Positions 1-59,291 of a stretch of 61,210 bases of DNA are shown in pieces. Positions within the stretch are counted from its first letter, which is position 1. Every line of letters begins with the position of its first letter. This DNA is from a virus. The notes under the pieces are model-generated. The model ran no database searches and was not told where the DNA came from. It worked only from the letters and a program-made list of their open reading frames with translations. The translations under genes were made by a program, and so were the position numbers. The stretch spans positions 1-61,210 of IMG/VR virus record IMGVR_UViG_3300037247_000367. One strand, written 5' to 3'.

Positions 1-126
1 ATTAAAAAAGGAGATTTAGGAGGATGGGTCTCTGGCGATGCGTGGGTCTCTGGCGATGCGTGGGTCTATGGCGATGCGGAGGTCTATGGCAATGCGAGGG
101 TCTATGGCGATGCGAGGGTCTATGGC
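1..126. repeat. Left copy of terminal direct repeat
   Basis: Bases 1-126 are identical to 61068-61193. Beyond that the two ends still align to base 143, with mismatches only at 127/61194 (A versus G) and 133/61200 (T versus A). Such an overlap is what a circular or circularly permuted genome gives when assembled as a linear contig. Confidence 0.95.
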
Positions 127-537
127 AATGCGTGGGTCTATGGCAATGCGAGGGTCTATGGCAATGCGAGGGTCTCTGGCGATGCGAGGGTCTATGGCGA
201 TGCGGAGGTCTCTGGCAATGCGAGGGTCTCTGGCGATGCGTGGGTCTATGGCGATGCGTGGGTCTATGGCGATGCGGAGGTCTATGGCAATGCGAGGGTC
301 TCTGGCAATGCGAGGGTCTATGGCGATGCGTGGGATAAATCACCTCTGCAACTTCAGGGTACAAGAGATTTTGTCAATATCTGCAAAAAAGGATATATCA
401 AAATAGGATGTTTTGAATTAACCTTTAAAGAGTGGAAGAAAAAGTATAAGGAAATAGGAGAAGAAAACGGCTATACAAAGGAGCAAATCAATGAGTATGG
501 CTTATACATTAACCTGATAATTAAACTTTATTCTTAA
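1..537 (+). CDS. Hexapeptide-repeat beta-helix protein, C-terminal part (continues from right end)
   Basis: This is the C-terminal part of a gene whose first 33 codons lie at 60969-61067; the frame joins exactly across the contig ends. It opens with KKGDLGGWV, then 17 six-residue units of the form [WRE]-V-[YS]-G-[DN]-A, then about 68 non-repetitive residues ending in IIKLYS. V at position 1 and A at position 5 of each unit fit the left-handed parallel beta-helix hexapeptide rule. Phage proteins with a KKGDLGG lead-in followed by such repeats are widespread, but I know no proven role; binding or structural functions are guesses. The stop overlaps the next start (TAATG). Confidence 0.85.
   Translation: MKKGDLGGWVSGDAWVSGDAWVYGDAEVYGNARVYGDARVYGNAWVYGNARVYGNARVSGDARVYGDAEVSGNARVSGDAWVYGDAWVYGDAEVYGNARVSGNARVYGDAWDKSPLQLQGTRDFVNICKKGYIKIGCFELTFKEWKKKYKEIGEENGYTKEQINEYGLYINLIIKLYS
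25..330 (+). repeat. 18-bp tandem repeat, 17 units
   Basis: Seventeen in-frame 18-bp units (consensus NGGGTCTMTGGCRATGCG) encode the hexapeptide repeats. Variation is limited to a few positions: the first codon (TGG, AGG or GAG), TCT or TAT, and GAT or AAT. The restricted set of variants suggests shuffling and slippage of a few unit types. Confidence 0.95.
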
Positions 538-5068: not shown

Positions 5069-5294
5069 AGACAAGGTATTAGTAGTGGGTTATTTAGCAG
5101 GCGTACAGGGCGACCTGGAAGGGAGGTTGGACGTATTTGAAGGCAACTTTATAATTAAGGAACCCAAAGAAGAAAGGAAAAAGACAATAGAAAACCACGT
5201 CAGAATAATGAAATTAACACAGACCTTTTTACATGAACTTTGGGACGATTATAATAAACTATTAAAGGAACACAATGAGCAAAGGCAGGTGTAA
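5055..5294 (+). CDS. Small hypothetical protein with GTG start, 79 aa
   Basis: The reading frame opens with GTG at 5055, preceded at good distance by a strong Shine-Dalgarno sequence, GGAGGT at 5044-5049, rare in this genome. The product (starts MKYYKDKVLVVGYLAG) has a beta-type N-terminal half and a helical, charged C-terminus. It overlaps the helicase end by 14 bases, suggesting translational coupling. No family recognised. Confidence 0.6.
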   Translation: MKYYKDKVLVVGYLAGVQGDLEGRLDVFEGNFIIKEPKEERKKTIENHVRIMKLTQTFLHELWDDYNKLLKEHNEQRQV

Positions 5295-5472: not shown

Positions 5473-5917
5473 AATGCGAGGATATTTTGGAATAGGAATT
5501 GAGAATACTAAAACCAAAGCGAACATCGGTACACTTTGGCGATCAGCTTATGGATTAGGCGCAGCATTCATTTTTGTTATTGGCAACCGATATAAAAAAC
5601 AATCCAGCGATACAGTAAAGGCAATGCGACATATTCCAATGTATCATTATGATACTTTTGAACAATTCTATGAAAATATGCCAAAGGATTGTCTATTAAT
5701 AGGGGTAGAATTACATAGCCGGGCAAGGGAATTAAGCACCTATGGGCATCCTGAAAGAGCAATTTACTTACTTGGAGCAGAGGATAGCGGATTAAGCAAA
5801 AAGGCACTTGAAAAATGTCATAGTTTAATACAATTTAAAAGTAATTATTGTTTAAATGTAGCAGTTGCCGGAAGTATTATAATGTACGACAGGCAATCTA
5901 AAACCAACTCAAAATGA
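5462..5917 (+). CDS. SpoU/TrmH-family RNA 2'-O-methyltransferase
   Basis: A 151-aa SPOUT-fold enzyme with all three SpoU motifs: NIGTLWRSA (residues 21-29), LLGAEDSGLS (103-112) and YCLNVAVAGSI (129-139), which together form the knotted SAM-binding site. Its length is that of TrmL-like tRNA (Cm34/Um34) methyltransferases, so a tRNA or rRNA ribose target is likely; the exact site cannot be told. Phage copies are uncommon. It may protect tRNA from host anticodon nucleases or tune translation; that is inference. Confidence 0.85.
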   Translation: MNIKMRGYFGIGIENTKTKANIGTLWRSAYGLGAAFIFVIGNRYKKQSSDTVKAMRHIPMYHYDTFEQFYENMPKDCLLIGVELHSRARELSTYGHPERAIYLLGAEDSGLSKKALEKCHSLIQFKSNYCLNVAVAGSIIMYDRQSKTNSK

Positions 5918-6630
5918 AAAAACCAACTTTCAAAGAATACCTAAAAGACCACATCAAAAGGGCGGAAAAAGCAGGTGTGACCTGCGAGGAATTTGACAAA
6001 GTAAAAAGAGTTAAAACTCAAGGGTCTTTTCTCAAAATTCTTGCTGATAACATCAGTTATTTATATGACGAAAAAATTGTCGAATTAAAGCACTTGCAAT
6101 TTTTCGATCAAAAAGAATTGTTGAAAGTTGGAATTTACATAACCGGCAATCATTCGATTGACAAAGGTGCGGTGTTTATTGGAGGCGATGTAACGATAAA
6201 CGATGTCTGGGGCGGAACGATAAAATATGTCTGGGGCGGAACGATAAACGATGTCAGGGGCGGAACGATAAACGATGTCAGGGGCGGAACGATAAACGAT
6301 GTCAGGGGCGGAACGATAAACGATGTCTGGGGCGGAACGATAAAATATGTCTGGGGCGGAACGATAAACGATGTCTGGGGCGGAACGATAAAATATGTCT
6401 GGGGCGGAACGATAAAATATGTCTGGGGCGGAACGATAAACGATGTCAGGGGCGGAACGATAAACGATGTCTGGGGCGGAACGATAAAATATGTCTGGGG
6501 CGGAACGATAAACGATGTCTGGGGCAATATAGACAGAATTGGGAAAATCTCAAATTTGGGCGTTGTGAAATGTATGAAAGAGAATAAAATCTATGTCAAA
6601 AAGGGTAAATTTGAAATCGTGGAATTATGA
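5914..6630 (+). CDS. GGTI-repeat solenoid protein
   Basis: A 238-aa protein. Residues 1-90 are a non-repetitive, partly helical N-terminus (MKKPTFKEYLKDHIKRAEKA). Then come 13 units of eight residues, GGTI[NK][DY]V[WR], and a 36-residue C-terminal cap. Regular G-G-T-I-x-x-V-x spacing suggests a parallel beta-solenoid. The repeats are almost identical in DNA, so the array expanded recently. No function known to me; a binding surface whose size varies by repeat number is a reasonable guess. ATGA overlap with the methyltransferase gene. Confidence 0.75.
   Translation: MKKPTFKEYLKDHIKRAEKAGVTCEEFDKVKRVKTQGSFLKILADNISYLYDEKIVELKHLQFFDQKELLKVGIYITGNHSIDKGAVFIGGDVTINDVWGGTIKYVWGGTINDVRGGTINDVRGGTINDVRGGTINDVWGGTIKYVWGGTINDVWGGTIKYVWGGTIKYVWGGTINDVRGGTINDVWGGTIKYVWGGTINDVWGNIDRIGKISNLGVVKCMKENKIYVKKGKFEIVEL
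6211..6522 (+). repeat. 24-bp tandem repeat, 13 units
   Basis: Exactly 13 units of 24 bp starting GGCGGAACGATAAA. Only three unit types occur: NDVW, NDVR and KYVW, differing at two short blocks (ACGATG versus AATATG; CTGG versus CAGG). The rest is invariant, which indicates recent duplication and shuffling. Confidence 0.95.
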
Positions 6631-50833: not shown

Positions 50834-50875
50834 TAAATATTTAAAGAAAAAATGTTTTTATTTAAAATTATATTG

Positions 50876-50883
50876 TATATTTG
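50876..50883 (+). promoter_or_regulatory. -7 box of tnpB
   Basis: TATATTTG, a perfect TAnnTTTG match, 4 bases before the tnpB ATG at 50888, the same spacing as at 3216 and 9220. Confidence 0.5.
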
Positions 50884-50887
50884 TTTC

Positions 50888-52030
50888 ATGTTAAAGGCGT
50901 ATAAATATGAACTTTTGCCAACGGTAGAACAAGCGAGCCAAATTAATCAAATAGTTGGCAGTTGCCGATATATTTATAATTTGGCTTTGGAAACAAAAAT
51001 ATATGCTTATCAATCACATAAAAAATCCATAAGTTGTTTTGATTTAATGAGCCAATTGCCTGAATTAAAAAGAGATAAAAAAACGAAATGGTTAAATGAA
51101 GCACCTGCTCAAAGTTTACAACAAACAATATCAAATTTAGACACTGCCTTTTCAAACTTTTTCAGAGGCAAAGCAAAATTCCCAACTTTCAAAAAAAGAA
51201 CATATAAACAAACATTCAGAATATTACAGGGAATAAAAGTAAATTTTGAAAATTGGCAAGTATTTATCCCCAAATTAAAATGGGTAGAATTTTGCAGAGA
51301 TAGGCAGTTTGAAGGCGAAATAAGGCAAGCAACAATTTTAAAGACACCTACAAATAGATATTTCATTTCAATACTTGTACAGGACGGTAAAGAAGTTCCA
51401 AAGAAAAAACCTGTAAAAGAAAGTACAGCCGTTGGTATTGATGTAGGGTTAAAGCATTTTGCAACGCTTTCAAATGGCACTAAAATTGAAAATCCAAAAT
51501 TCTTATTTCAATCGTTAAGGCGATTAAGAATTGAACAAAGAACACTACAAAGACGGTATAAAAAAGGACTAAAATACGATGAACAAAGCAATGGGTATAA
51601 AAAACAGAAATTAATTGTTGCTAAGTTGCACGAAAAAATAGCATTTCAACGTAAGGACTTTTTGCATAAATTAAGTACAGATATTGTCAATAGCCACGAT
51701 AGTATTTGTGTAGAAAATTTGAATATAGCAGGAATGCTAAAAAACAAGAAGTTAAGTCGGAGTATTTCAGATGTAGCTTGGGGGCGATTTTTATCTTATT
51801 TACAATATAAAAGCGACTGGTATGGTAAAAATCTTTTACAGATAGGCAGATTTGAGCCAAGCAGTAAAATGTGTTCCTGTGGTAAAATTAATTCTGAATT
51901 AAAATTATCTGATAGGCAATGGACTTGTAAGCATTGCGGAACAACACATGATAGAGACGAATTAGCAGCTAATAATATAAAAACATTCGGGCTTCGGGCA
52001 AAGCCCTTATCCGCTAACGTGAAGCATTAG
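50888..52030 (+). CDS. tnpB: TnpB (IS200/IS605 OrfB), RNA-guided nuclease
   Basis: A 380-aa complete TnpB: N-terminal HTH-like helices (PTVEQASQINQIVGSCRYIY), RuvC catalytic Asp185 (GIDVGLKHFATLSNG), Glu276 (CVENLNIAGM) and Asp357 (THDRDELAANNI), and a zinc finger CSCGK...CKHCG between the last two. All catalytic residues are present, so it should be active as an omega-RNA-guided DNA cutter. The frame is open upstream to 50852 but ATG 50888 is the natural start. No tnpA is present. It sits between two fibre genes. Confidence 0.93.
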   Translation: MLKAYKYELLPTVEQASQINQIVGSCRYIYNLALETKIYAYQSHKKSISCFDLMSQLPELKRDKKTKWLNEAPAQSLQQTISNLDTAFSNFFRGKAKFPTFKKRTYKQTFRILQGIKVNFENWQVFIPKLKWVEFCRDRQFEGEIRQATILKTPTNRYFISILVQDGKEVPKKKPVKESTAVGIDVGLKHFATLSNGTKIENPKFLFQSLRRLRIEQRTLQRRYKKGLKYDEQSNGYKKQKLIVAKLHEKIAFQRKDFLHKLSTDIVNSHDSICVENLNIAGMLKNKKLSRSISDVAWGRFLSYLQYKSDWYGKNLLQIGRFEPSSKMCSCGKINSELKLSDRQWTCKHCGTTHDRDELAANNIKTFGLRAKPLSANVKH

Positions 52031-53488: not shown

Positions 53489-53763
53489 TGAAAGGCATAC
53501 CATGTAATAGTGCTGAATTTGATTTATTGCAAACTGCGGTTCACAATGAATTGAAAAAATCCATAAAAGGGTACAAAAAAAACACTGTTAAGTGGGCAGA
53601 TAAGAAACTTGTACCATTTAATAAATCAACTAATAAATATCTTTTCCCTGTTAGCAAAGGTATGAGATGGGGGGTTATAAAAAAACTATTATCTTCGCCT
53701 CAAAAAACAAGGATTATAGAAGTATTACCTAACGATAAAAACTGGTTTAATGGAACACCTTAA
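53488..53763 (+). CDS. Hypothetical protein, 91 aa
   Basis: Basic protein starting MKGIPCNSAEFDLLQTAVHN, with KRGMRWGVIKKLLSSPQKTR-type basic helix (KGMRWGVIKKLLSSPQKTR). It lies between the lectin-like gene and the holin. Function unknown. Confidence 0.5.
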   Translation: MKGIPCNSAEFDLLQTAVHNELKKSIKGYKKNTVKWADKKLVPFNKSTNKYLFPVSKGMRWGVIKKLLSSPQKTRIIEVLPNDKNWFNGTP

Positions 53764-53911
53764 ATCATCATTATTAGGATATATCTTTACAACTGTTACC
53801 TTTGGGGTCATTGGTGATCTTGGAATGGCGTTTCTTTTAGGCTTTATCGGTGCTTTGGGTGGGTTGTGTGCTAAGTTATTATATGATCTTGTTAAAAAGA
53901 AAAGAAAATGA
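53750..53911 (+). CDS. Holin-like membrane protein, 53 aa
   Basis: Two short membrane helices (LLGYIFTTVTFGVIGDLG and MAFLLGFIGALGGLCAKLLY) and a basic tail KKKRK. Small size, Gly-rich helices, basic C-terminus, and an ATGA overlap with the endolysin gene fit a class II holin that releases the endolysin or lets it pass the inner membrane. Position is the main evidence. Confidence 0.65.
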   Translation: MEHLKSSLLGYIFTTVTFGVIGDLGMAFLLGFIGALGGLCAKLLYDLVKKKRK

Positions 53912-54430: not shown

Positions 54431-54760
54431 ATGACAAAATTCAGAGACACTAAGTTCTTCAACTTTTTCACGAAGAACGCAGCTAATCCGACAGAAGGAT
54501 TGATAAACACAGCCCTTTCTTTGATAAAGGACAAGACAAGAGATACTGAGACGTCTTTTATACGCGATGTGGTGAGGAAAGGTGTAAGCATTAGTTCAAA
54601 GAGGGTGCTGAATTTGACGGGTACAGGTGCGATTTTAACTATTGCCTTGTTTCTTATTCAAAAAAACGGCTTAGATAAATGGACTTTAATACTTGTGGGA
54701 ATAGGCGTTTTATATTCTTTGGGTATGAGTTTCATTACAAGCTGGAAGGAAAAGGATTAA
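54431..54760 (+). CDS. Membrane protein next to lysis cassette, 109 aa
   Basis: An amphipathic, basic N-terminus, then two predicted membrane helices (VLNLTGTGAILTIALFLI and WTLILVGIGVLYSLGMSFIT) and a charged end (SWKEKD). Probably a second holin or antiholin. No lipobox, so a spanin is less likely. Confidence 0.55.
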   Translation: MTKFRDTKFFNFFTKNAANPTEGLINTALSLIKDKTRDTETSFIRDVVRKGVSISSKRVLNLTGTGAILTIALFLIQKNGLDKWTLILVGIGVLYSLGMSFITSWKEKD

Positions 54761-55602: not shown

Positions 55603-56841
55603 ATGCTTGCAAAGATAACAAAAAGTAATAAGAAAATAAACCCTTTCGGGGGAATATTTTTCGCAATAAAAGCCATCCGAAACAAAAATATCCACAAACT
55701 TATAGACAAACACTTGGGGCAGAGGGTGAAACAAGCCAAATACTCTTATTCCGATGTAGTCCTCAACTGGATATTCTCAAACCTCTGCGGTGCTGAAAGA
55801 TTAGAGGATATTAATACTAAGATGAAATACTACTTCGATAATACGATTATGAATCTACCATCACCGGACAGGGTTGCGGGAGTGCTGAAATCATTTACAA
55901 CGAAAAATATACTAACAAAAGACAAAGCAAGACATCAATTTAATATAAATATGTCTTTGAACAAATTGATGCTAAACATCGCAATTAAGTTAGGATTATT
56001 AAATACCAAACAAAGCTATACGCTGGATTATGATAATACAATAATAGAAACCCTTAAATATGATGTAACTAAGACCTATAAGTTTAATTACGGCTATCAA
56101 CCCGGAGTGTCCTTTATAGGAAAGATACCTGTTTACATTGAAGGCAGAAACGGAAACAGCAATGCAGTTTACAAGATCACAGAAACAATAGAGCGAAGCA
56201 TTGAATTACTAAAGGAATCGGGAATAAAAATAAACAAGTTCAGGAGCGATTCAGCAGCTTACAGGAATGATCTTTTTAAATTAATGGATGACAATAATAT
56301 AGATTTTTTCGTAAGGGCAAAAAATAACAAAACCCTGACAGATTATTTTGCCGACCCTTTCGGATGGACAGACATTATACTTTATGATTTAAAATATCAA
56401 ATGAAAAGTATTGATTATGGACTACACGGAAACGATACTAAATACAGGTTGGTAATGTATCGCACAGAGAAAGATGATAAATTGAAGTATCTTGCTGTTA
56501 TCACTAACAACTGGACTATGAGCGAACATGAAATAATAAGATTCTATAACCAAAGGGGCGCAATAGAAAAGAACTTCGATATGCTGAAAAATGATTTTAA
56601 CTGGAAGCGGTTGCCTTTTTCTTTTCTCAACGAGAATACTGTTTTTATGATAATCAGCGCAATGGGTTCAATCGTCTATCAATATCTCATACAAGAATTC
56701 AGCAAGAAAGTTGACTTTGTAAAATGCAAATTCCGGCTAAAGAATTTCATCTATCATTTTGTTATAGTGCCTGTTATATGGGAGAAAGAGACGCAATTAA
56801 AAATATTTACCGACAAAGATTACGGCATTCTATTGGAATGA
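55603..56841 (+). CDS. IS1380-family DDE transposase
   Basis: A 412-aa protein with YSYSDVVLNWIFSNLCGAER (48-67), the conserved IS1380 N-terminal block, and catalytic Asp142 or Asp144 (TLDYDNTIIE), Asp216 (KFRSDSAAY) and Glu322 (NQRGAIEKNFDMLKNDF). GYQPGVSFIGKIPVYIEGRN is another family block. Size and motifs look complete, so the enzyme may be active. I could not find convincing terminal inverted repeats flanking it; the nearest match (ATTTTACTT about 55441 against 56911-56919 inverted) is only 9 bp. Confidence 0.85.
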   Translation: MLAKITKSNKKINPFGGIFFAIKAIRNKNIHKLIDKHLGQRVKQAKYSYSDVVLNWIFSNLCGAERLEDINTKMKYYFDNTIMNLPSPDRVAGVLKSFTTKNILTKDKARHQFNINMSLNKLMLNIAIKLGLLNTKQSYTLDYDNTIIETLKYDVTKTYKFNYGYQPGVSFIGKIPVYIEGRNGNSNAVYKITETIERSIELLKESGIKINKFRSDSAAYRNDLFKLMDDNNIDFFVRAKNNKTLTDYFADPFGWTDIILYDLKYQMKSIDYGLHGNDTKYRLVMYRTEKDDKLKYLAVITNNWTMSEHEIIRFYNQRGAIEKNFDMLKNDFNWKRLPFSFLNENTVFMIISAMGSIVYQYLIQEFSKKVDFVKCKFRLKNFIYHFVIVPVIWEKETQLKIFTDKDYGILLE

Positions 56842-56843
56842 AG

Positions 56844-56861
56844 TTGCGTAGTTTTACGCAA
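56844..56861. promoter_or_regulatory. Palindrome TTGCGTA-GTTT-TACGCAA
   Basis: A perfect 7-bp inverted repeat starting 3 bases after the transposase stop. Related sequences follow: ATTATACGT (56872-56880) and ATTATGCGT (56885-56893) as direct copies, so several GCGTA-type half sites cluster just before the ncRNA promoter. They may be operator sites or an element end. Confidence 0.5.
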
Positions 56862-56903
56862 AAAATGCGGGATTATACGTGAAAATTATGCGTAGATTTA
56901 CTC

Positions 56904-56934
56904 TTGTTTTATTAAAGTAAAATACTTAATTTTG
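56904..56934 (+). promoter_or_regulatory. Strong Bacteroidetes promoter for ncRNA
   Basis: TTG (56904-56906), 20-base spacer, TAATTTTG (56927-56934). Transcription should start at about 56939, with no open reading frame before the terminator at 57080. Confidence 0.7.
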
Positions 56935-56938
56935 CCTA

Positions 56939-57109
56939 TTGTTCTTTGAATCTTACGAGAGTAAGAAAAAGTATTAATCTGGTTTTGTACTAAAATCGCC
57001 TTTTATAAATTATCCAACCAGGAGGAATAGCGTAGGTTGTTCCTGTGGATATATGGGTGTTTGGCGATACCTTGTACAAGCAGGATGCAGTCCTGCGCTT
57101 TTTTATTTT
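56939..57109 (+). ncRNA. Stand-alone structured RNA, about 170 nt
   Basis: Bounded by a promoter and a rho-independent terminator. Predicted stems: CTTAC-GAGA-GTAAG (about 56952-56965), ATCC-AAC-CAGGA ... TCCTG-T-GGAT (around 57009-57047), GGTGT-TTGGCG-ATACC (about 57055-57070) and the terminator stem. No convincing ORF; the frame through ATG 57053 simply runs into the lipoprotein gene. It could be a 6S-like, antisense or sponge RNA; no known family recognised. Confidence 0.6.
57080..57109 (+). terminator. Terminator of ncRNA
   Basis: GCAGGA-TGCAG-TCCTGC, then GC and TTTTTTATTTT: a perfect 6-bp stem with 5-base loop and strong T tail. Confidence 0.8.
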
Positions 57110-57169: not shown

Positions 57170-57598
57170 ATGAAAACAACAATTTTATTTTTACTGTTAT
57201 CTTTTCTTAGTTGCAAAAAAGAAGAAGCAACTCCTCCGGCAGCGGTGGTTACTCCCCCACCAGTTGTAACTCCACCCCCACCTTTACCTGATAAGATATT
57301 CAGCGTGAGGATGTATGAAACACAGACTAAACCGTGGATGGATTCATTTAGTCAAGATTGGTTTGTAACCTATAATCTTACAACAATAGGCATACCAGCC
57401 ACAGCAATAGATATGTATTGGTTAAAGGAAAATGAAACTATAACAATAGACGGGGAGTTTAAGCCTGCATATCCTTATAGTGGAATATATGCCTATGTAA
57501 GAAGTTGGGTAGATTTAACGGATACAGTACCAACAACAATAGTAGTACCCGTAACTGTTACAGCTAACATATTCAGCTATACCTTTACTTATAATTAA
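57170..57598 (+). CDS. Lipoprotein, 142 aa
   Basis: Start chosen at ATG 57170 because MKTTILFLLLSFLSC is a lipoprotein signal with Cys15 (L-S-F-L-S-C), although the lipobox is loose. A Pro/Thr/Val linker (TPPPVVTPPPPLPD) separates the anchor from a beta-type domain (Ig-like pattern, YAYVRSWVDLTDTVPTTIVV). A surface or periplasmic protein, probably made to alter the host envelope. No SD. Paired with the next lipoprotein gene. Confidence 0.75.
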   Translation: MKTTILFLLLSFLSCKKEEATPPAAVVTPPPVVTPPPPLPDKIFSVRMYETQTKPWMDSFSQDWFVTYNLTTIGIPATAIDMYWLKENETITIDGEFKPAYPYSGIYAYVRSWVDLTDTVPTTIVVPVTVTANIFSYTFTYN

Positions 57599-57604
57599 GA
57601 AGCT

Positions 57605-58075
57605 ATGAAAACGAAAATCTTAATATTAAGTGTAAGTATGATTTTATTAACCATAATTGGTTGTACAAAAAGAAAAGGCTGTACAAGTACGTGGGCAGAT
57701 AATTATGATTCGCAGGCAGAAACCAATGATGGGTCTTGCTATAAATATGCTTGTACAAGCCCAGATGCAACAAATTATTGGGTAAAGGCAACAGATGATT
57801 GTTGTTGTAAATATGATGTACAATATCTTTTGTCTTGTTCAAGTTGCGATATAACTTATGAAAATAGTAGCGGGGGAGTTTCACAGCAAGGTAATGTAGG
57901 CAGTTCATGGTCATACTCTTTTACCGGAAATACAGGAGATTTCGTTTATATATCCGCACAAAATCAGAATGATTATGGTAGCATAACCGTTACAATAAAG
58001 CGTGGGAATACTGTTTATAAGACATCTACAAGTTCAGGGGCTTATGTTATTGCTACGGCAAGTGGGTCTATTTAA
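57605..58075 (+). CDS. Cys-rich lipoprotein, 156 aa
   Basis: MKTKILILSVSMILLTIIGC is a good lipobox signal (I-I-G-C). Next GCTSTWADNYDSQAETNDGS is the A-D-N-Y-D...N-D-G-S-C motif repeated in many Bacteroidetes secreted proteins, then DDCCCKYD and SCSSCDI, and a Ser/Gly/Tyr-rich C-terminal beta domain. Host-like sequence suggests capture of a host gene. A receptor-masking (superinfection-blocking) role is plausible. Confidence 0.8.
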   Translation: MKTKILILSVSMILLTIIGCTKRKGCTSTWADNYDSQAETNDGSCYKYACTSPDATNYWVKATDDCCCKYDVQYLLSCSSCDITYENSSGGVSQQGNVGSSWSYSFTGNTGDFVYISAQNQNDYGSITVTIKRGNTVYKTSTSSGAYVIATASGSI

Positions 58076-59153: not shown

Positions 59154-59291
59154 ATGAAAACAAAATGTGCAAGATGCGGAAAGCCCATGAAATATAATGG
59201 GGCTAAATGGTGGCTGCATGAAAAATGTAAAACCAAAGGCGAAATAAAAGTTGCTAAAAAACTAAACCAACGATTAAATCAAACACTATGA
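59154..59291 (+). CDS. Small zinc-finger-like protein, 45 aa
   Basis: MKTKCARCGKPMKYNGAKWW then HEKCK: C-x2-C ... H-x2-C, a likely zinc site, followed by a basic helix. ATGA overlap with the next gene. Confidence 0.55.
   Translation: MKTKCARCGKPMKYNGAKWWLHEKCKTKGEIKVAKKLNQRLNQTL

What the first reader, a model, noticed from the sequence alone, without database searches (positions are those of the whole stretch)
56904..57109. Stand-alone phage ncRNA with own promoter and terminator
A near-consensus promoter and a textbook terminator enclose about 170 nt with no convincing ORF and several stems. It is the best-delimited RNA gene in the window. Its place between transposase and lipoproteins suggests a regulator of host or of the island. 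A 6S-like mimic of promoter DNA or a sponge RNA are options.
Basis: partly seen in the sequence, partly recalled or inferred. Interest (0 to 1): 0.72.

Follow-up and report, generated by a model that had tools for sequence, protein, structure and literature searches.

The report
Phage boxA leader RNA switch candidate
A virus of Bacteroidota bacteria carries a strongly conserved, folded RNA of about 166 bases that starts with the same short signal bacteria use in their ribosomal RNA leaders and can fold either into a stop signal or into a shape that blocks it, so it probably decides whether the phage's neighbouring surface-protein gene is read.

Summary
In detail: promoter, folded RNA without an ORF, and intrinsic terminator are real. 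The promoter is a Bacteroidota one (TTG-N20-TAnnTTTG), not the E. coli type. A second phage contig (G001/L002) carries the RNA at 98% identity in its core, while the promoter spacer is 50% and the downstream lipoprotein gene 85% identical. (1) Three palindromes (TGCGTA-n4-TACGCA type) at ~22-bp steps abut the -33 element in both phages. (2) The transcript begins UUGUUCUUUGAA; GTTCTTTGA is the most widespread 9-mer in Bacteroidota rRNA leaders (13 of 25; none in controls), i.e. boxA. (3) A stretch in the RNA (57030-57046) can form 17 pairs with both arms of the terminator (0 of 5000 shuffles as good): an antiterminator. (4) In both phages the same lipoprotein gene follows ~65 nt on, with no recognizable promoter of its own. 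Best reading: not a stand-alone ncRNA but the leader/attenuator of a moron-like lipoprotein operon, giving a short RNA by default and mRNA on read-through. A trans-acting sRNA is not excluded; 6S-like mimicry has no support. Signal, switching and function are inferred; only two copies are known.

The parts
56845..56860 (.). Palindromic site 1, TGCGTAGTTTTACGCA (perfect)
   Evidence: counterpart in L002 at 5085-5100
56867..56882 (.). Palindromic site 2, degenerate (TGCGGGATTATACGTG), 22 bp from site 1
   Evidence: sequence; counterpart L002 5107-5122 is near-perfect; 50% identity
56889..56904 (.). Palindromic site 3, TGCGTAGATTTACTCT, 22 bp from site 2, touching the -33 element, centre near -42
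   Evidence: counterpart L002 5130-5145
56904..56906 (+). -33 element TTG of a Bacteroidota sigma-A promoter
56927..56934 (+). -7 box TAATTTTG (TAnnTTTG); start site expected at 56938/56939
   Evidence: consensus position from PMC9723704 and PMC7366714
56939..56950 (+). boxA UUGUUCUUUGAA at the 5' end of the transcript
   Evidence: 12/12 identical in L002; GTTCTTTGA in 13 of 25 Bacteroidota rRNA leaders, none in controls
56951..56966 (+). Hairpin 1; stem covaries, loop GAGA replaced by UUAU in the relative
56985..57079 (+). Core domain closed by UUGUAC/GUACAA (56985-56990 with 57074-57079), with AUCGCC/GGCGAU and an inner bulged hairpin; 98% identical in the relative
57030..57046 (+). Antiterminator strand GCGUAGGUUGUUCCUGU, can form 17 pairs with 57080-57098
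57080..57104 (+). Intrinsic terminator GCAGGAUGCAGUCCUGC-GC-UUUUUU
   Evidence: identical in L002
57170..57598 (+). Downstream lipoprotein gene (142 aa), probably the controlled gene; unknown family
   Evidence: 89% aa identity in L002, no Pfam or PHROG match
57605..58075 (+). Second putative lipoprotein gene, possibly in the same operon
   Evidence: no family; a different secreted-protein gene is at this place in G001

Best explanation
This is the regulated leader of a small cargo ('moron') operon of a Bacteroidota phage. A Bacteroidota sigma-A promoter, probably activated by a protein that binds three evenly spaced upstream palindromes, makes a transcript that starts with a boxA, followed by a hairpin and a highly conserved multi-helix domain, and normally ends at the intrinsic terminator about 165 nt on. 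If the inner helix of that domain is disturbed (by a ligand, a protein, or a Nus complex loaded at boxA), the freed strand 57030-57046 captures both arms of the terminator, polymerase reads on, and the downstream lipoprotein gene or genes are expressed. Shown from sequence: promoter footprint, conserved fold, boxA identity with host-phylum rRNA leaders, significant terminator/antiterminator complementarity, conserved linkage to the lipoprotein gene. Inferred: the activator, that the switch is used, its signal, that boxA recruits NusB/S10 here, and the lipoprotein's role (perhaps a surface change of the infected cell).
For: Core plus terminator: 127 of 129 ungapped positions identical, against 85% for the lipoprotein gene and 50% for the promoter spacer. 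The 17-pair antiterminator is better than all 5000 dinucleotide shuffles and than all but 16 of 5000 shuffles that keep the terminator-state structure; every one of its 17 pairs is kept in the second copy, and both substitutions in the core keep pairs elsewhere in the alternative fold. GTTCTTTGA is in 13 of 25 Bacteroidota rRNA leaders, 0 of 19 far-upstream controls, never reversed in leaders; boxA is 12/12 conserved while the hairpin next to it is 56%. The same lipoprotein gene follows in two phages that otherwise share only patches, and in G001 the unit lies antisense to the neighbouring structural genes. No TAnnTTTG lies between terminator and ATG in either copy (sequence).
Against: Only two sequences, so covariation is thin (one double change, one paired insertion). 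The energy gap between the two states (2.0 and 2.6 kcal/mol) is not unusual against shuffles (85 and 113 of 300 as small; 53 of 400). A helix that would mask boxA in the alternative state is not significant. A lipoprotein promoter with a degenerate -7 box cannot be excluded. boxA as known from E. coli rRNA acts against Rho, not against intrinsic terminators. The RNA is more conserved than its gene, which also fits an RNA with a function of its own.
Confidence: 0.5

Rival explanations
1. A stand-alone small RNA that acts in trans (by base pairing or protein binding); the lipoprotein gene is merely a stable neighbour with its own weak promoter.
For: Own promoter and strong terminator; RNA core (98%) more conserved than the neighbouring gene (85%); very stable fold. 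Independent transcripts of about this length (median 176 bp) are common in a Bacteroidota species (PMC9723704).
Against: Same gene downstream in both copies, no recognizable promoter between; significant antiterminator for its own terminator; no copy found without the lipoprotein gene.
Confidence: 0.25
2. A passive attenuator: a leader with a leaky terminator that simply sets a low level of the lipoprotein, with no signal-dependent switch; the antiterminator pairing is a by-product of similar helix sequences.
For: Energy gap between states ordinary against shuffles; inner helix strand UUCCUGU and terminator arm UCCUGC resemble each other.
Against: The complementarity spans both terminator arms (17 pairs) and exceeds structure-preserving shuffles (16 of 5000); a passive terminator would not need a 98% conserved 130-nt domain.
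Confidence: 0.14
3. A Nus-factor element: boxA plus hairpin forms a nut/put-like antitermination site, or the short RNA is a decoy that titrates NusB/S10.
For: boxA identical to the host-phylum rRNA leader motif, at the very 5' end, directly followed by a covarying hairpin.
Against: Hairpin loop not conserved, unlike boxB; no N-like protein recognized; does not explain the conserved core or the antiterminator; a single boxA in the window.
Confidence: 0.07
4. A 6S-like mimic of promoter DNA that binds RNA polymerase.
For: Length near 6S RNA and a long bulged hairpin.
Against: No match to any 6S or 6S-Flavo model up to E = 10; no large symmetric bubble in the predicted fold; conserved antiterminator and linkage to a gene argue for cis action.
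Confidence: 0.03

Closest known systems
Transcription attenuators / riboswitch-type leaders with mutually exclusive terminator and antiterminator
   Same: Structured leader, intrinsic terminator, upstream strand able to pair with both terminator arms, gene downstream
   Different: No match to any Rfam family; ligand or factor unknown; sits in a phage cargo unit; begins with boxA
rRNA-operon boxA leaders (NusB/S10 loading site) and boxA-regulated genes such as suhB (PMC5725501)
   Same: Same boxA sequence as in Bacteroidota rRNA leaders, in a 5' leader
   Different: boxA at the first transcribed bases and an intrinsic terminator within 165 nt; no other rRNA-leader feature tested or seen
Lambdoid nut sites (boxA-boxB) and HK022 put RNA
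   Same: Phage leader with boxA directly followed by a small hairpin, ahead of a terminator
   Different: Hairpin loop not conserved between the two copies; no N-like protein identified; Bacteroidota phage
6S RNA (including 6S-Flavo)
   Same: Length and general hairpin shape only
   Different: No covariance-model match; terminator/antiterminator and boxA instead of an open-promoter-like bubble
Phage morons
   Same: Cargo with own promoter at different places and orientations in two phages, predicted surface lipoprotein
   Different: Headed by a conserved RNA with a terminator rather than a bare promoter

Membership tests
Terminator/antiterminator attenuator leader | Intrinsic terminator in the leader of a coding gene | tested here: inconclusive
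   Terminator 57080-57104, gene at 57170, no TAnnTTTG in between in either copy; that the gene is read from this promoter is not shown
Terminator/antiterminator attenuator leader | Upstream strand complementary to the terminator beyond chance, and conserved | tested here: met
   0 of 5000; 16 of 5000 with structure kept; all 17 pairs kept
Terminator/antiterminator attenuator leader | Read-through that responds to a signal | not testable with these tools
   Needs transcription assays
Known riboswitch or other Rfam family | Match to a curated covariance model | tested here: not met
boxA leader (NusB/S10) | boxA sequence as found in rRNA leaders of the host phylum | tested here: met
boxA leader (NusB/S10) | Binding of NusB/S10 and effect on elongation | not testable with these tools
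   Biochemistry needed
Lambdoid nut site | boxB hairpin with a conserved loop recognized by an N-type protein | tested here: not met
   Loop differs completely between the copies while the stem covaries
6S RNA | Match to 6S or 6S-Flavo models | tested here: not met
   No such match up to E = 10
6S RNA | Binds RNA polymerase and templates pRNA | not testable with these tools
   Needs pull-down and pRNA assay
Stand-alone phage sRNA | Downstream gene has its own promoter | tested here: inconclusive
   No clear promoter downstream, but degenerate ones cannot be excluded
Leader-peptide attenuator | Conserved short ORF in the leader | tested here: not met
   No shared start codon and frame upstream of the antiterminator

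The most novel reading that the evidence does not exclude
A new class of phage-borne RNA switch: a boxA-led leader whose conserved domain senses a ligand or an infection-state protein and, through a 17-pair antiterminator, decides between a short RNA and expression of a surface lipoprotein in Bacteroidota cells carrying the phage.
Probability: 0.3. Interest if true: 0.68.

Novelty: new variant of a known kind. Interest (0 to 1): 0.47.

Why it matters
Regulatory RNAs of Bacteroidota phages are hardly described. A compact unit with activator-like sites, a host-type boxA, a conserved domain and a terminator/antiterminator pair would show how such phages time expression of surface cargo, would be a tractable test of whether boxA works outside rRNA in this phylum, and may hide a new ligand-binding RNA.

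Tried and rejected
Rfam at gathering and relaxed thresholds: nothing. Phage and plasmid record collections by blastn and tblastn: nothing relevant. A structural pattern over about 85,000 species genomes gave 13 hits, about the number expected by chance by my estimate; the Fibrivirga hit, one Paraburkholderia hit and the one new viral contig (L018) were read and lack the flanking sequence, the others were not read. Covariance model over 396 Bacteroidota genomes and 98 genomes of one order: nothing. Lipoprotein profile over 396 genomes: two marginal matches only. Tandem-palindrome pattern in viral contigs: seven contigs; L172 shows a similar layout but beside a repressor-like gene and without the RNA; none in 396 genomes. 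Energy gap as proof of two states: dropped, ordinary against shuffles. Pairing of boxA with GAGGAAUA in the alternative fold: not significant. Leader peptide: no conserved frame. Lipoprotein structure model too poor to search (mean pLDDT 53). TnpB omega RNA: the TnpB gene is 5 kb away and none is seen in L002.

Full report
Observation. The region was re-read and scanned. A terminator (57080-57096 and six T) is present; the generic sigma-70 scan gives no promoter at 56904, but the Bacteroidota form TTG-N20-TAnnTTTG is there (TTG 56904-56906, TAATTTTG 56927-56934). The -7 consensus TAnnTTTG lies at -12 to -5 in Flavobacterium (PMC9723704) and is combined with a TTTG-like -33 element in Bacteroides (PMC7366714), which puts the start site at about 56938/56939. 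The 164-nt RNA folds much better than shuffles (z -3.7). Rfam gives no family.

A second copy. One IMG/VR contig, IMGVR_UViG_3300005663_000145 (L002, whole record G001), carries the RNA followed by a homologue of the same lipoprotein gene. The two phages share only patches. In G001 the unit lies on the strand opposite to the neighbouring structural genes and has no transposase upstream. The transposase of the window is therefore a bystander, and RNA plus lipoprotein behave like a cargo unit (moron).

What is conserved. By segment: palindromes 1 and 3 81%, TTG 3/3, 20-nt spacer 50%, -7 box 7/8 with the one change at an n position, first 12 transcribed bases 12/12, the hairpin after them 56%, core plus terminator 127/129 with two further gap columns, spacer to the gene 83%, gene 85% (35 synonymous and 18 non-synonymous codon changes). 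The RNA core is the most constrained long segment. The changes in the stem of the diverged hairpin keep its pairs (UA to CG, UA to UG) while its loop is replaced, and the two one-base insertions in the core face each other in a helix. With two sequences this is support, not proof, of the fold.

Upstream sites. Three 16-bp sites of type TGCGTA-n4-TACGCA start at 56845, 56867 and 56889 (22-bp steps); in L002 at 5085, 5107 and 5130. The first is perfect in the window; the second is degenerate there and near-perfect in L002. The last touches the -33 element in both, its centre near -42, the place of a class-II activator of the CRP/FNR kind (established knowledge). Which protein binds is unknown, and no such tandem was found in 396 Bacteroidota genomes.

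boxA. The RNA starts UUGUUCUUUGAA. To test whether this is boxA, leaders of 25 16S genes from a phylum-wide sample were taken. GTTCTTTGA is the 9-mer present in most of them (13 of 25; the next reaches 9 and is an overlapping form or rRNA-proximal). It is absent from 19 far-upstream stretches and from the 16S genes, and never appears reversed in the leaders. So the phage RNA carries the rRNA-leader boxA of its presumed host phylum. The gammaproteobacterial consensus is GYTCTTTAANA, and boxA regulation outside rRNA is known for suhB and others; the authors note that non-coding RNAs were not considered (PMC5725501). Names of the sampled genomes are hidden; they are the phylum of Fibrivirga algicola (L010).

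Terminator and antiterminator. Constrained folding showed an alternative state in which 57030-57046 (GCGUAGGUUGUUCCUGU) pairs with 57080-57098, taking both arms of the terminator, 17 pairs with two bulges. The duplex energy is -23.9 kcal/mol against a mean of -13.6 (sd 2.5) in shuffles, 0 of 5000 as good; with shuffles that keep the terminator-state structure, 16 of 5000. All 17 pairs are the same in L002, and the only two substitutions in the core keep pairs elsewhere in the alternative fold. The energy gap between the states (2.0 and 2.6 kcal/mol) is ordinary against shuffles, so the case rests on the specific complementarity, not on overall energies. In order of synthesis the inner helix forms first and hides the antiterminator strand, so termination should be the default.

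Reading. No TAnnTTTG lies between terminator and lipoprotein ATG in either copy, no short ORF is conserved, and the same gene follows in both. The simplest account is a leader with a conditional terminator that controls a lipoprotein cargo operon. What disturbs the domain, and whether Nus factors loaded at boxA take part, is inferred. A trans-acting RNA remains possible. 6S-like mimicry is not supported.

Rarity. Nothing in phage and plasmid records, in 396 Bacteroidota genomes, in 98 genomes of one order, or elsewhere in IMG/VR by exact pieces of the RNA or by the lipoprotein. Exact-piece searches miss diverged copies, so the true range may be wider.

Verdict. A real, conserved regulatory RNA, reinterpreted as a boxA-led attenuator of a lipoprotein cargo operon: new as a family, of a known kind in mechanism. 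Interest is moderate, limited by two copies and no expression data.

Noticed in passing
window 50852-52030: TnpB/OrfB of the IS605 type with a Cas12f1-like TNB domain beside tail-region genes; its guide RNA was not looked for.
   Followed up: no
window 55603-56841: DDE transposase (Pfam DDE_Tnp_1_4) ending 4 bp before the first palindrome, with no clear terminal inverted repeats found; absent from the related phage at this place.
   Followed up: partly
window 53746-53911, 54467-54760, 59154-59275: Further patches at 80-86% DNA identity with G001, the first mostly between two listed genes; the two phages look like mosaic relatives.
   Followed up: partly
L174 (IMGVR_UViG_3300043013_000026), about 1550-2050: A 109-kb viral contig with many copies of the palindrome TGCGTAnnnnTACGCA in a short stretch.
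   Followed up: no
L172 1140-1230: A similar tandem-palindrome layout touching a TTG, beside a repressor-like gene; no copy of the RNA.
   Followed up: partly
window 24-406 and 5914-6630: Short in-frame repeats (WRCxGLW- and GGTINDVW-like units) seen in the ORF list.
   Followed up: no
rRNA leaders in L142-L171: About half of the sampled Bacteroidota rRNA leaders carry GTTCTTTGA roughly 80-220 nt before 16S: a handy phylum-level boxA form.
   Followed up: yes
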